Source of the DNA: an uncultured Bacteroidota bacterium
GTDB taxonomy: Bacteria > Bacteroidota > Bacteroidia > UKL13-3
DNA length: 33,011 bases
Assembly: GCA_903901345.1 (NCBI GenBank)
Contig: CAIUQQ010000052.1
Coordinates: 1-33,011 of the forward strand
Reading direction: 5' to 3'
A program made the translations under genes and the position numbers. Below the pieces are notes generated by a model that saw nothing but the letters and a program-made list of their open reading frames with translations, was not told where the DNA came from and did no database searches. Position 1 is the first letter of the stretch, and each line of letters starts with the position of its first letter. Shown here piece after piece: positions 1-6,852 of this stretch.

Positions 1-960
1 AATTAAAACTGCAGTTCCCAAATGCAACTCTTCTTCACCAAATAAACTAGCAACGTACATGACAGTTTGAACGCCCATACTTGTAAAGAAAAAACCTAAC
101 AAATATTTTAACATGGTGGGTTGTTGTTTTACTTGTTCCCAAACTTTTTTCAACTCGTCAAAACCTTTACTTAATAAATTTCCTTCATATGTTTTATGTG
201 AATGAATTTCGGGCACATTTTTAAACATAATTTGAGCAAAACCTGCCCACCAAATACCAACTGAAACAAACGATAAACGAGTAGCAATTCCCGCATAAAA
301 ACCTTTTGCTTCTTCGGTTGCAAGTTCATTAGTTAATAAAGGATTGGCAGCCATTAACTCAGTTATTTTTGCTTGAACAGGGAAAAATAATTCTGGCATC
401 ATGATAGTCATTAAATTTAAAATTAATAAAATAACACTCCCAATATATCCCATTGAAAAACCTTTAGCACTCACTTTATCTAGCATTTCTTCACTGGCTA
501 TTTCGGGTAAAAAAGCATTGTAAAAAACTAAACTTCCTGCAAATCCAACTAAGCTTAGCATGAATAAAACAACGCCCATTCCAATGGTATTAGCTGTAAA
601 AAAATACATGCCAATGCAACTGGCGGAACCCATATAACAAAAAACTTTTAAAAAGAATTTTTTATTGTGTTTAAAATCTGCAATTCCTGACAATAAAGGA
701 CTTAAAAAAGCTACTATTAAAAAACCTGCAGAAACTACAAATGAATACAATTCAGCTCCAACTACTTTCATTCCCCAAAAATTTAAATAGTAAATTCCGT
801 CTTGCACGCTACCTTGAGCTACAGAAGCAGTTTTACACATTTTATTAAAATAAATTGGGAAAATAGCAGTGGCTATAGTCAATGAAAACACCGAATTGGC
901 CCAGTCATACATAGCCCATGAGTTGATTACTTTTTTATTATTTAGTTCAAATTTTTTCAT
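1..960 (-). CDS. MFS transporter, UMF1/Atg22-like family (partial, C-terminus beyond window)
   Basis: Reverse-strand translation from 960 gives MKKFELNNKKVINSWAMYDWANSVFSLTIATAIFPIYF..., a multi-TM protein with the 'WAMYDWANS' N-terminus typical of UMF1-type MFS. Open to the window edge. Confidence 0.8.
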   Translation of the reverse strand, partial: MKKFELNNKKVINSWAMYDWANSVFSLTIATAIFPIYFNKMCKTASVAQGSVQDGIYYLNFWGMKVVGAELYSFVVSAGFLIVAFLSPLLSGIADFKHNKKFFLKVFCYMGSASCIGMYFFTANTIGMGVVLFMLSLVGFAGSLVFYNAFLPEIASEEMLDKVSAKGFSMGYIGSVILLILNLMTIMMPELFFPVQAKITELMAANPLLTNELATEEAKGFYAGIATRLSFVSVGIWWAGFAQIMFKNVPEIHSHKTYEGNLLSKGFDELKKVWEQVKQQPTMLKYLLGFFFTSMGVQTVMYVASLFGEEELHLGTAVLI

Positions 961-1963: not shown

Positions 1964-1976
1964 AATTATATTCAAC

Positions 1977-2006
1977 AAAAAAGCCACTTTATAAAGTGGC
2001 TTTTTT
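1977..2006. terminator. Bidirectional Rho-independent-like terminator after enoyl-CoA hydratase
   Basis: Perfect inverted repeat AAAAAAGCCACTTTATAAAGTGGCTTTTTT with A/T tails on both sides. Confidence 0.85.
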
Positions 2007-2011
2007 ATTAT

Positions 2012-2144
2012 CTACCCCTTCCAATACCACTCTTCAGTTTTTATTTCCGATTCTCTTTGGTACCAATAATCTTTGACTATTTTCAATTTTTACAGTTTAA
2101 AATTAAATTGTAAATTTGATGTGTAAGAGCGAAGAAAATTTAAA
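2012..2144 (-). pseudogene. Decayed copy (A) of the 3' end of the 6288-6668 ORF plus adjacent sequence
   Basis: Reverse-strand translation reads ...KLKIVKDYWYQRESEIKTEEWYWKG*, nearly identical to ...VVTKDYWYQRETEMKTEEWYWKG* of the 126-aa ORF. An in-frame stop lies just upstream and there is no start. Confidence 0.7.
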
Positions 2145-2157
2145 AAATTGTTCCCAT

Positions 2158-2217
2158 GCGGCAAATATATCATTTATTCACCGCAAATATGCGGTGAATA
2201 AATGATATATTTGCCGC
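2158..2217. promoter_or_regulatory. 60-bp near-perfect palindrome, putative operator of the Fic gene, containing a Bacteroidetes -7-like box (TATATTTG, 2206-2213)
   Basis: GCGGCAAATATATCATTTATTCACCGCAAATATGCGGTGAATAAATGATATATTTGCCGC. Every position pairs about 2187/2188 except 2186/2189. It ends 16 bp before the ATG at 2234. Confidence 0.75.
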
Positions 2218-2233
2218 AAAATAGTATTAGAGA

Positions 2234-3340
2234 ATGGCAAAATACATTTATGAGCATAAAAACTGGACAGCGTTTACTTGGCAAGAACAAGCAATAAATT
2301 CTGTGTTTGGCGAGGTTCGCCTCATGCAAGGAAAAATCATTGGTCAAATGAATGCATTGGGTTTTTCAAGCAAAGAAGAAGCCACGCTAAATGCATTAAC
2401 CTTAGACGTAGTAAAATCATCTGAAATAGAAGGCGAATTGCTTAACTACGAACAAGTGCGTTCATCCATAGCAAGACGTTTGGGCATCAATACTGCTGGA
2501 CTTGTTCCAAGTAGCCGAAACATAGAAGGCATAGTAGAAATGATGCTTGATGCTACCCAACGCTACAAATTACCTTTGACCGAAAAACGATTGTTTGGTT
2601 GGCACGCAGCACTTTTTCCCACAGGACACAGCGGACCTTACGAAATAGAAGTTGGAAAATACCGTACAGGTAAAATGCAAATAGTTTCGGGTGCAATGGG
2701 TAAAGAAAAAGTGCATTACGAAGCTTTAAAACCCGAACTAGTGAAAACAGAAATGGACAAGTTTTTAGATTGGTTTAACAAAGACAATACTCTTGATCCA
2801 GTTTTAAAAGCTGCCATCGCACACTTTTGGTTTATTATTATTCATCCTTTCGATGATGGAAACGGTAGGATTGGTAGAGCAATAACTGATATGTTGCTTG
2901 CCCAAGCGGAAGGTAGTGGTGAACGATTTTACAGCATGTCGAGCCAAATTTTATTGGAACGTAAACGCTATTACGAAATATTGCAAAAAGTGCAACACAG
3001 TACAAGCGACATTACCGAGTGGCTTGAATGGTTTTTAAATTGCCTAAAAAATGCAATACTTGCCACCGAAAACACCACACAAAGAATATTAAATAAAGCC
3101 CAATTTTGGAAGTTGCATGAACATACATCATTGCATGAACGTCAACGCTTAATGCTCAACAAAATGTTTGACGGTTTTGAAGGCAAATTGCAAACCTCAA
3201 AATGGGCAAAAATAACCAAAACATCTACCGACACTGCCTTACGAGATATAAAAGACCTGGTGAATAAAGGTATTTTGCAACAAACAAACGAAGGAGGACG
3301 AAATGCCAATTATGAATTAGTGGAGTTTAAATTAGAATAA
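2234..3340 (+). CDS. Fic family protein with DUF4172-type N-terminus and C-terminal winged-helix-like region
   Basis: Core motif HPFDDGNGRIGRAI matches HPFxxGNGRxxR. The N-terminal SSEIEG matches the (S/T)xxxE(G/N) inhibitory motif. The C-terminus KWAKITKTSTDTALRDIKDLVNKGILQQTNEGGRNANYEL resembles a wHTH. Confidence 0.93.
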   Translation: MAKYIYEHKNWTAFTWQEQAINSVFGEVRLMQGKIIGQMNALGFSSKEEATLNALTLDVVKSSEIEGELLNYEQVRSSIARRLGINTAGLVPSSRNIEGIVEMMLDATQRYKLPLTEKRLFGWHAALFPTGHSGPYEIEVGKYRTGKMQIVSGAMGKEKVHYEALKPELVKTEMDKFLDWFNKDNTLDPVLKAAIAHFWFIIIHPFDDGNGRIGRAITDMLLAQAEGSGERFYSMSSQILLERKRYYEILQKVQHSTSDITEWLEWFLNCLKNAILATENTTQRILNKAQFWKLHEHTSLHERQRLMLNKMFDGFEGKLQTSKWAKITKTSTDTALRDIKDLVNKGILQQTNEGGRNANYELVEFKLE

Positions 3341-3343
3341 ACG

Positions 3344-3463
3344 TTCCTATTCTATACCTCTGTCACACCACTTCTTTTTGTTACCAATAATCTTTGGTTA
3401 TTTTCAGTTTTTGTGGTTTGAAAATAAATCTAAATTTGGATATGTTAGCGCTAAGAAAATTTA
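3344..3463 (-). pseudogene. Second decayed copy (B) of the same 3' tail
   Basis: Reverse strand reads ...KLKITKDYW*QKE.... At the DNA level it aligns with copy A through 'ttaccaataatctttg.tattttca.ttttt...taaattt...gaagaaaattta'. Confidence 0.6.
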
Positions 3464-4039: not shown

Positions 4040-6154
4040 ATGAAAACAATTCTTTTTATTATAAGTATTTTTGGACTATCGATAAATTCATTTAGTCAAT
4101 TTTCAAAGTTATTTCAATTTAGTAACTTAAATTATCAAGGTAAGTTTCCATGTGCAAATTTGATTTCAATTGGGAATCAACTATATGGAACAATATCACA
4201 AGGTGCTGGTAGTACAGGTAATGGTAATGGTGGCATTTTCAAGATAAACAAAGATGGTACAAACTTTAACCTCATTAAAGGTTTCGGAAACACAACACAA
4301 GGACAAAACCCAATGGGTACGTTGTATTTTGATGGAACTTACTTGTACGGTACAACGTATTCTGGCGGTGGCGGTGACTATGGAGCTTTTTTTAAAATGC
4401 TTCCTGATGGCTCTAATTTCATTAGTAGGTCCGCTTTTTCACCACGCGGTTCATTTGTTTCAGATGGAAGTTCTCTTTATACTACGGATTATATAGGTGG
4501 AACTTCATCAAAAGGATCAATTTGTAAAGTGAATCTATTGGATATGACATTCCAGATATTATATAGTTTTAATGGTGTAAATGGAGAAATACCTAAAGGA
4601 GATTTGTTGCGCATAGGTATTTATTTGTATGGTATGACTGAAAAAGGAGGAATAAATGGATTAGGTACTCTTTTCCGAATTAAAACAGATGGTACAGGTT
4701 TTCAAAAATTGTTAGATTTTGCTGGAACAAATGGTGCTGGTGGTCCAACTGGTTCATATATTGGTTTAGGAGGATTAATAACTGATAGTACATTTTTATA
4801 TGGCATGACCTGTACGGGTGGTATAAATAATCAAGGTGTTATATTTAAAATTCAATTAGACGGAACAAATTATCAAAAACTTTTAGACCTAAATAATACA
4901 ATAACAGGTAGTTTACCATTTGGTGCTTTGTACTATGTAAACAATAGGTTGTTTGGAATGACATCATCTGGTGGTTTAAATACTTTTGGGACTATTTTTA
5001 TGATAAAAAAAGATGGTACTAATTTTCAAAAAATTCATGATTTTGATGGAATTGATGGAGGAAGAACACCTTTGGGTTCATTTTATTATGAAAATGGCTT
5101 TCTTTATGGAATGACATCAAGAACTGGCAGCACTACCACCACAAATGACGAAGGACTTATATTTAAGAAAAAAGTTTGTGTGCCAACTACGAGTAATAAC
5201 AATGCAACATCATGTAAACAATATTTATGGCATGGTCAGACATATACCCAAAGTGGTACATTTATTTATTCACTTAACAATTCTCAGGGCTGTGATTCTG
5301 TTGCCACATTGAATCTAACAATAAATAATGTAAATAAAAATATCAATGTTAGTGGAAATACAATAATAAGTCAAGCAATTGGGGCTACTTATCAATGGTT
5401 AAACTGTGATAACAAAATGTCAATCATTAATGGTGCAACAAGTCAATCTTTTAAGCCATCATTAAGTGGGAATTATGCAGTAAAAATCACTCAAAATGGT
5501 TGTATAGACACTTCTAACTGTATTTTTATTTGTATACCTACTTCAAGTAATAACAATGTAACAACATGTAATCAATATACTTGGCACGGCCAGACATTTA
5601 AACAAAGTGGTACATATACTTATACTTTAGTAAATTCTCAAGGATGTGATTCAATTGCTACATTGAATCTAACAATTGATTCTGTAAATAAAAATATCAG
5701 TGTTATTGGAAATACAATAACAAGTCAAGCAATTGGAGCTACATATCGTTGGTTAAACTGTAACAATAACATGTCTGTCATAAATGGTGAAACCAGTCAA
5801 TCTTACACGCCACTTTTAAGTGGGAATTATGCTGTAAAAGTTACTCAAAATAATTGTATCGACACATCCAATTGTATTTCTATTACGACCGTAGGAATTG
5901 ATGAAGTATTGGTAAAGATGAATTTTGTTGCATTCCCAAACCCCACAACTAAAACAATTAATATATCATTTGAATCGCCTCAAGCCCTCATAAGTTTAAG
6001 GCTAATTACTATTGATGGTAAATTGTTAACTGAGAAAACATTCTATCAAACTGAAAAAATAGAATTTACTATAATGGAACCTAATGGCATTTATTTTCTG
6101 GAGTTAACTGATAATTTTAACAATAAATCAAGGTTGAGAGTTGTAAAACAATAA
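4040..6154 (+). CDS. Secreted protein with GloVer-type tandem repeats and T9SS type A sorting domain
   Basis: Signal peptide; multiple LYGMTxxGGxNxxGxIFKIxxDGTxxxxL repeats (GloVer/TIGR03803 style); C-terminal FPNPTTKTINISF...GIYFLELTDN...VVKQ. Confidence 0.85.
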   Translation: MKTILFIISIFGLSINSFSQFSKLFQFSNLNYQGKFPCANLISIGNQLYGTISQGAGSTGNGNGGIFKINKDGTNFNLIKGFGNTTQGQNPMGTLYFDGTYLYGTTYSGGGGDYGAFFKMLPDGSNFISRSAFSPRGSFVSDGSSLYTTDYIGGTSSKGSICKVNLLDMTFQILYSFNGVNGEIPKGDLLRIGIYLYGMTEKGGINGLGTLFRIKTDGTGFQKLLDFAGTNGAGGPTGSYIGLGGLITDSTFLYGMTCTGGINNQGVIFKIQLDGTNYQKLLDLNNTITGSLPFGALYYVNNRLFGMTSSGGLNTFGTIFMIKKDGTNFQKIHDFDGIDGGRTPLGSFYYENGFLYGMTSRTGSTTTTNDEGLIFKKKVCVPTTSNNNATSCKQYLWHGQTYTQSGTFIYSLNNSQGCDSVATLNLTINNVNKNINVSGNTIISQAIGATYQWLNCDNKMSIINGATSQSFKPSLSGNYAVKITQNGCIDTSNCIFICIPTSSNNNVTTCNQYTWHGQTFKQSGTYTYTLVNSQGCDSIATLNLTIDSVNKNISVIGNTITSQAIGATYRWLNCNNNMSVINGETSQSYTPLLSGNYAVKVTQNNCIDTSNCISITTVGIDEVLVKMNFVAFPNPTTKTINISFESPQALISLRLITIDGKLLTEKTFYQTEKIEFTIMEPNGIYFLELTDNFNNKSRLRVVKQ
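5177..5884 (+). repeat. Two tandem 354-bp (118-aa) intragenic repeats
   Basis: CVPTTSNNNATSCKQYLWHGQTYTQSGTF...IDTSNCIFI at 5177 is repeated as CIPTSSNNNVTTCNQYTWHGQTFKQSGTY...IDTSNCISI at 5531, in frame. Confidence 0.85.
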
Positions 6155-6287: not shown

Positions 6288-6668
6288 CTATCCTTTCCAA
6301 TACCACTCTTCGGTCTTCATCTCGGTTTCTCTTTGGTACCAGTAATCTTTGGTTACTACTTGTCCTGATTCTATTTTTAGTTCGCGGTTAAACACAGCAT
6401 TGATTGGGCTAAATGATACATCGGTTACGCCAACATTAAAAGTTGTTGGGGCTATTGGTTCATCAATTTCGGGTATAATTTCGCCTTCCACAACGGCTGG
6501 TTTTGGTGCAGCTTTTGGTGGCGGACTTGGAACTACCACTACCGTAAATTTATTTAATTCCAATAATTGTTTTAAAAAATCAACACGGGCTTGCGAGCAG
6601 TTTTTTTCTACAATGGCACATTTTATTTCGCCAAGATCTTCAAAAGTATGTGTTGTATTTAGGGCCAT
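6288..6668 (-). CDS. Uncharacterised 126-aa protein with proline/alanine-rich linker
   Basis: Intact ORF MALNTTHTFEDLGEIKCAIVEKNCSQARVDFLKQLLEL...VVPSPPPKAAPKPAVVEG...KDYWYQRETEMKTEEWYWKG. Its 3' end is duplicated at 2012 and 3344. Confidence 0.7.
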   Translation of the reverse strand: MALNTTHTFEDLGEIKCAIVEKNCSQARVDFLKQLLELNKFTVVVVPSPPPKAAPKPAVVEGEIIPEIDEPIAPTTFNVGVTDVSFSPINAVFNRELKIESGQVVTKDYWYQRETEMKTEEWYWKG

Positions 6669-6710
6669 GTTTGATATGCTTTATTGTTTATTATTTTACT
6701 TAATTTTTTT

Positions 6711-6852
6711 GCCACAGATTCACAGATTTTTTCTTCTAAATTTATTTGAAATTTTTAGTTCAATCTTTGGCTGCTTTTTTCACTTAATTTTTTTTGCCAC
6801 AGATTCACAGATTATTTTTTAAAATTGCTAATATAATCTGTGAATCTGTGGC
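6711..6852. repeat. Three copies of GCCACAGATTCACAGATT (two direct, one inverted)
   Basis: Direct copies at 6711-6728 and 6796-6813; inverted AATCTGTGAATCTGTGGC at 6835-6852. The last two form an 18-bp perfect-stem hairpin just downstream of nuoN. Confidence 0.85.

What the first reader, a model, noticed from the sequence alone, without database searches (positions are those of the whole stretch)
2158..2217. Near-perfect 60-bp palindrome directly upstream of the Fic/DUF4172 gene, with a promoter box embedded in it
Seen directly: 58 of 60 positions pair, and the palindrome ends 16 bp before the Fic ATG. The right arm contains TATATTTG (2206-2213), matching the Bacteroidetes -7 consensus TAnnTTTG, and the left arm necessarily contains its mirror on the other strand. 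The core TTCACCGCAaataTGCGGTGAA is a more GC-rich nested dyad. Inference: the Fic protein's wHTH-like C-terminus, or the Fic protein as an AMP-sensing regulator, may bind this site and autoregulate, coupling AMPylation to transcription. A cruciform or RNA-hairpin role is an alternative.
Basis: partly seen in the sequence, partly recalled or inferred. Interest (0 to 1): 0.72.

Follow-up and report, generated by a model that had tools for sequence, protein, structure and literature searches.

The report
Self-recognised operator of a Fic enzyme
The 60-base palindrome is real and is one copy of a switch found in front of nearly every gene of this Fic (AMP-transferase) family: the DNA letters change in step with the DNA-reading helix of the Fic protein, so the enzyme very probably binds and controls its own promoter.

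Summary
The palindrome is confirmed: two perfect 29-nt arms (2157-2185, 2190-2218) around AATA, unique in its genome, 15 nt before the Fic/DUF4172 ATG. The perfect symmetry is not the conserved feature. Across 193 homologous loci the conserved element is an operator of 11-bp half-sites (TGNNNNRAWTA) paired as 29-bp inverted modules, usually two modules, overlapping a TATATTTR promoter box. In 198 genomes of the class all 9 loci matching the strict pattern lie directly beside a Fic homologue. Half-site letters differ between clades (TGCGGY, TGCGGA, TGCAAC, TACGGC, TTCGGY, TGTTAC, TGAGCC, TGAGGC). They co-vary with residues 331-337, the start of the predicted recognition helix of the Fic protein's own C-terminal winged helix. 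This is the only 7-residue stretch of 368 that holds a diagnostic column for all four rare half-site changes tested. Best explanation: the Fic protein is the sequence-specific autoregulator, most likely repressor, of its own promoter. No binding was measured. The concept is known from Yersinia CccR; the family-wide four-site operator and recognition code were not found in the papers searched. The perfect palindrome itself is a secondary template-switch copy: the left arm was rewritten from the right, with two further likely cases elsewhere.

The parts
2157..2218 (.). Fic operator: two 29-bp inverted modules, here forming a 62-bp near-perfect palindrome
2157..2167 (+). half-site A, TGCGGCAAATA
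   Evidence: aligned with homologues
2175..2185 (-). half-site B, read on the minus strand TGCGGTGAATA
   Evidence: columns 25-29 of the operator 99-100% conserved
2190..2200 (+). half-site C, TGCGGTGAATA
   Evidence: columns 34-37 of the operator 99-100% conserved
2208..2218 (-). half-site D, read on the minus strand TGCGGCAAATA; overlaps the promoter box
2206..2213 (+). predicted -7 promoter box TATATTTG (Bacteroidota type), overlapping half-site D
   Evidence: TATATTT conserved 88-99% per column in 95 operators; function inferred
2234..3340 (+). Fic/DUF4172 protein, 368 aa; N-terminal SSEIEG inhibitory motif; HPFDDGNGRIGR Fic motif at residues 204-215
3137..3319 (+). C-terminal winged helix-turn-helix, residues about 302-362
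   Evidence: AlphaFold2 model, mean pLDDT 91; TM 0.91 to 8CIL
3224..3244 (+). residues 331-337 (STDTALR), start of the recognition helix, which co-vary with the half-site letters

Best explanation
The palindrome is the operator through which the Fic protein controls its own transcription. A dimer of the DUF4172-Fic-wHTH protein places its two winged helices on the two 11-bp half-sites of a 29-bp module. Two modules (A/B and C/D) lie side by side, and the downstream one covers the -7 box TATATTTR, so binding should block RNA polymerase and hold expression low. Shown here: the element is conserved, it is exclusive to Fic genes in the genomes scanned, its architecture is fixed, and its letters co-vary with the protein's own recognition helix. 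Inferred: physical binding, repression rather than activation, and the dimer-per-module stoichiometry. The perfect symmetry of this particular copy is inferred to be a secondary template-switch product in which the left module was rewritten as the reverse complement of the right.
For: (1) Nearly all of the 80 nearest homologues (81-96% identity, many Bacteroidota orders) carry the TGCGGT-N17-ACCGCA-N4-TGCGGT-N17-ACCGCA layout or most of it about 15 nt before the start codon; the few others are cut off, masked or degenerate. (2) RCCGCAN4TGCGGYN17RCCGCA in 198 class genomes: 9 loci in 8 genomes, all adjacent to a Fic homologue, 0 hits for the reversed-pattern control. In its own genome even single modules with one mismatch occur only here. 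(3) Half-site score >=20 in 83% of 190 upstream regions against 0 of 950 dinucleotide shuffles; 29-bp inverted module (>=9/11) in 82% against 3.6%. (4) The half-site class differs by clade and co-varies with helix residues: base 3 = C in all with D333 (164), not C in all with A/M/S333 (15); base 2 = T with R337N, R337 being otherwise invariant (2 of 2 against 177); TGCRAC with I/V336, the only diagnostic column in the protein (8 against 171, two origins on the tree); TACGGC with S331H. Only window 331-337 of 362 seven-residue windows holds a diagnostic column for all four, also without hand-assigned labels. (5) AlphaFold2 puts 332-344 as the recognition helix of a winged helix. (6) Proteobacterial plasmid homologues show matching helix and site: Pantoea and Acinetobacter SKATAT with TGAGCC-type sites, Labrenzia and Sulfitobacter SQDTA with TGCGGA. 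(7) Precedent: CccR represses itself through its HTH on inverted repeats near its -35/-10 (PMC9755527).
Against: No binding or expression was measured. Independent phylogenetic contrasts are few (1-5 per trait on well-supported branches), so no single contrast reaches significance on its own. Two of 12 plasmid homologues break the D333/base-3 rule: Bradyrhizobium A333 with TGCAGA, Persicobacter D333 with a TGAGAA-like repeat. 19 of 193 upstream regions gave no automatic call; some are degenerate or masked, and two (L238, L241) are remote Fic proteins without the site. Activation cannot be excluded from sequence.
Confidence: 0.87

Rival explanations
1. A separate regulator, not the Fic protein, binds the operator; the gene is simply always under that factor.
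For: The layout resembles many repressor operators, and no binding was measured for this protein.
Against: The site occurs only at Fic genes, travels with the gene across orders and phyla, and its letters co-vary with Fic's own recognition helix. No conserved neighbouring regulator gene is annotated in the plasmid loci read.
Confidence: 0.05
2. The palindrome works as an RNA hairpin or cruciform (attenuator, translational control, or structural switch).
For: This copy folds extremely well, and the B-C core can pair in most homologues.
Against: In 93 operators (without the two perfect copies) spacer pairing is 65.5% against 63.6% in shuffles, and outer half-site pairing is no better than shuffled. 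A-C mismatches at the B/C pair are common (13 of 93). If the conserved TATATTTR is the -7 box, the palindrome lies upstream of the transcript.
Confidence: 0.04
3. It is a recombination or insertion site of a mobile Fic cassette.
For: Fic with >80% identity is scattered over distant Bacteroidota; the window copy and some others are flanked by direct repeats of 92-437 bp.
Against: The element sits only at the 5' side of the gene with fixed spacing to the promoter box, and its letters follow the Fic DNA-reading helix rather than any recombinase. 64 of 76 loci tested have no flanking direct repeat.
Confidence: 0.03

Closest known systems
CccR of Yersinia pseudotuberculosis (FIC + HTH, T6SS effector and autorepressor; PMC9755527)
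   Same: Fic enzyme with a C-terminal HTH that represses its own promoter through inverted repeats over the promoter, as a dimer.
   Different: CccR footprint is AGATAATCAT-N26-ATGATAATCT, one pair of boxes; here four half-sites in two 29-bp modules, with other letters and spacing. The window protein's secretion was not examined.
CbFic2 of Coxiella burnetii (DUF4172-Fic-wHTH, PDB 8CIL; PMC10628234)
   Same: Same domain order, Fic motif and inhibitory helix; closest solved structure (E 3.7e-101; TM 0.91, 46% identity). Binds DNA through the wHTH, and DNA induces dimerisation and deAMPylation.
   Different: Only random DNA was used there; the authors leave a specific site open. The present work proposes what such a site should look like in this subfamily.
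SoFic / Sofic anti-phage Fic (PDB 3EQX; PADLOC SoFic; PMC12249575)
   Same: Class II Fic with C-terminal winged helix; PADLOC SoFic model matches at 8.6e-48.
   Different: Scores 70.7 against a cut-off of 550 for the NCBIfam SoFic equivalog; TM only 0.56-0.58. No antitoxin gene was sought.
Quasipalindrome template-switch correction (e.g. PMC7202029)
   Same: Imperfect inverted repeat turned into a perfect one by copying one arm from the other.
   Different: Here inferred at an operator, in up to three loci, with the left arm rewritten from the right in the two that could be compared.

Membership tests
DUF4172-Fic-wHTH class II Fic (CbFic2-like) | PF13776 N-terminal domain and PF02661 Fic domain above cut-off | tested here: met
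   109.8 and 68.1 bits
DUF4172-Fic-wHTH class II Fic (CbFic2-like) | Fic motif HPFxDGNGRxxR | tested here: met
   HPFDDGNGRIGR in P0002
DUF4172-Fic-wHTH class II Fic (CbFic2-like) | N-terminal inhibitory (S/T)xxxE(G/N) | tested here: met
   SSEIEG in P0002
DUF4172-Fic-wHTH class II Fic (CbFic2-like) | C-terminal winged helix | tested here: met
   H302-312, H321-328, H332-344, strands 348-351 and 359-362; TM 0.91 to 8CIL
DUF4172-Fic-wHTH class II Fic (CbFic2-like) | DNA-induced dimerisation and switch to deAMPylation | not testable with these tools
   needs purified protein
Autorepressed Fic-HTH regulator (CccR type) | Inverted-repeat sites over its own promoter | tested here: met
   promoter box inferred from sequence
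Autorepressed Fic-HTH regulator (CccR type) | 10-bp boxes separated by 26 bp | tested here: not met
   11-bp half-sites in 29-bp modules, N4 between modules
Autorepressed Fic-HTH regulator (CccR type) | HTH binds the site and represses | not testable with these tools
   co-variation only
SoFic equivalog | NCBIfam NF046030 score above cut-off | tested here: not met
   70.7 against 550 bits

The most novel reading that the evidence does not exclude
The operator acts as a DNA-borne antitoxin. A Fic dimer held on its four-site operator is locked in the deAMPylating or inactive state while it represses its own gene; loss of operator occupancy frees monomers that AMPylate. Co-resident Fic genes diverge in operator code (0 of 11 pairs share a class, P about 0.03) so that each switch stays insulated.
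Probability: 0.15. Interest if true: 0.82.

Novelty: new variant of a known kind. Interest (0 to 1): 0.62.

Why it matters
Class II Fic enzymes are the most common kind, but how they are controlled is little known (PMC9755527 says this explicitly), and for CbFic2 the specific DNA target is an open question (PMC10628234). This result gives a concrete operator for the DUF4172-Fic family in Bacteroidota and for several Proteobacterial homologues, plus a residue-to-base code that can be tested with single-residue swaps. If it holds, the family is a widespread class of enzymes that are their own regulators.

Tried and rejected
Viral contigs: 120 stretches match the strict pattern, none of the 80 loci held encodes a relative of this Fic, so treated as chance in a very large collection. 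Simple mutual information over all columns: helix residues 332, 333 and 336 rank high, but clade-wide columns do too, so it was replaced by the diagnostic-column test. Independent-pairs tests: too few contrasts for significance. RNA covariation: small excess only, rejected as the main role. Mobile-cassette idea: flanking direct repeats in only 12 of 76 loci, rejected as general. A -33 box at the usual spacing was not recognised by eye, so only the -7 box is claimed.

Full report
Observation. The inverted repeat is real: arms 2157-2185 and 2190-2218, 29 nt, fully complementary, loop AATA. It is unique in the 3.8-Mb genome, and its fold is far beyond shuffles (z -11.8). It ends 15 nt before the ATG of a 368-aa protein with DUF4172 and Fic domains.

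What is conserved. The one genome scan for relatives of the Fic protein returned 80 loci, 81-96% identical, from many Bacteroidota lineages and one Ignavibacteria genome. Printing their upstream DNA shows the same layout almost everywhere: TGCGGT-N17-ACCGCA-N4-TGCGGT-N17-ACCGCA, the last half-site about 15 nt from the start and overlapping TATATTTR. The left spacer is usually A-rich and does not mirror the right one. In 95 operators with this layout the full arms typically match at about 21 of 31 positions; only the window (30) and L056 (31) are near-perfect, the next best being 26. So perfect symmetry is the exception.

Specificity. The strict three-half-site pattern in 198 genomes of the class hits 9 loci in 8 genomes; every one is adjacent to a Fic homologue (one of them a truncated copy), and the reversed-pattern control has no hit. 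A scan of 396 genomes of the phylum with one arm and up to 3 mismatches found only one other place, L082, again in front of a 60%-identical Fic. In the window's genome the single 29-bp module, one mismatch allowed, occurs only here. This argues for a private operator rather than a regulon.

Distant homologues. DUF4172 searches and fetched stretches gave 193 non-redundant loci. The upstream regions keep the 29-bp inverted module but change letters by clade: TGCGGY 102, TGCGGA 47, TGAGCC 9, TGCAAC 7, TACGGC 3 and several rarer types among 179 usable proteins (15 labels were set by hand from the printed sequence where the automatic rule failed). A half-site score of at least 20 occurs in 83% of regions and in 0 of 950 shuffles; the module with 9 or more of 11 matching positions in 82% against 3.6%.

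Co-variation with the protein. Residues 331-338 read STDTALRD in the window protein. Base 3 is C in every protein with D333 and not C in every one with A, S or M333. T at base 2 goes with R337N while R337 is otherwise invariant. TGCRAC goes with I/V336, the only column of the protein with disjoint residues for that split. TACGGC goes with S331H. Sliding a 7-residue window along the protein, only 331-337 contains a diagnostic column for all four splits, with or without the hand-set labels. On a tree built from residues 1-295 only, the half-site class changes about 22 times, but the rare splits each represent one or two origins, so phylogenetic independence is limited and the sign tests cannot reach significance. 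The AlphaFold2 model (mean pLDDT 91) places 332-344 as the third helix of a winged helix, and the best structural match is CbFic2, 8CIL (TM 0.91).

Outside Bacteroidota. Twelve plasmid-borne homologues were read; nine are Proteobacterial. Pantoea and Acinetobacter have SKATAT helices and TGAGCC-type sites, the same pairing as distant Bacteroidota; Labrenzia and Sulfitobacter have SQDTA and TGCGGA. Bradyrhizobium (A333, TGCAGA) and Persicobacter (D333, TGAGAA-like) break the base-3 rule, so the code depends on context.

Why this copy is a perfect palindrome. Against L002 (96% identical protein) the left arm differs at 7 positions, all 7 to the complement of the right arm, while the right arm does not differ at all. 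L056 against L044 shows 9 of 9 in the left arm, with 2 differences in the right arm. L053 has an assembly gap flanked by mirror arms. This fits template-switch correction of a quasipalindrome, a known mutational mechanism (PMC7202029). In the two comparable cases the right arm, which carries the promoter box, served as the template.

RNA or DNA. Without the two perfect copies, pairing in the spacers is 65.5% against 63.6% for shuffled partners and outer half-site pairing does not exceed shuffles, so a conserved RNA hairpin is unlikely.

Mechanism. Binding of Fic dimers to two adjacent 29-bp modules, one covering the -7 box, would repress transcription. Precedent: CccR represses its own promoter through its HTH and inverted repeats (PMC9755527). 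CbFic2 binds DNA by the same domain, dimerises on it and then deAMPylates, but its specific sequence is unknown (PMC10628234). Repression and any coupling to AMPylation are inference here.

Side observation on insulation. In 11 genomes with two such genes, the two never share a half-site class; about 3 would be expected (P 0.03). Suggestive only.

Literature limits. Searches of the open library found no description of this operator; subscription papers are not covered.

Noticed in passing
window 2051-2142 and 3372-3463: A 92-bp direct repeat (about 80% identical) flanks the Fic gene. Long flanking repeats also occur at L026 (437 bp), L056 (199 bp) and L047 (95 bp), hinting at how the gene was inserted.
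   Followed up: partly
window 2012-2075 and 6288-6351: The sequence upstream of the Fic gene copies the 3' end of the minus-strand ORF 6288-6668 (86% over 64 bp).
   Followed up: partly
window 6704-6735, 6789-6820, 6796-6852: Repeated GCCACAGATTCACAGATT units as direct and inverted copies (23-nt arms, 96% complementary) between two genes.
   Followed up: no
window 1974-2009: Strong hairpin with T-run just after the enoyl-CoA hydratase gene, probably a terminator.
   Followed up: no
window 5175-5474 and 5529-5828: 300-bp duplication (81%) inside ORF 4040-6154.
   Followed up: no
P0002 (window 2234-3340): Matches the PADLOC anti-phage SoFic model at 8.6e-48, so a defence role is possible.
   Followed up: partly
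L053 2856-2959: Assembly gap of N exactly at the centre of a probable perfect palindrome; perfect copies may be under-represented in assemblies.
   Followed up: partly
G436:C22 (L093, L097): A truncated Fic copy (about 65 residues matched, with a stop) still carries an intact operator upstream.
   Followed up: no
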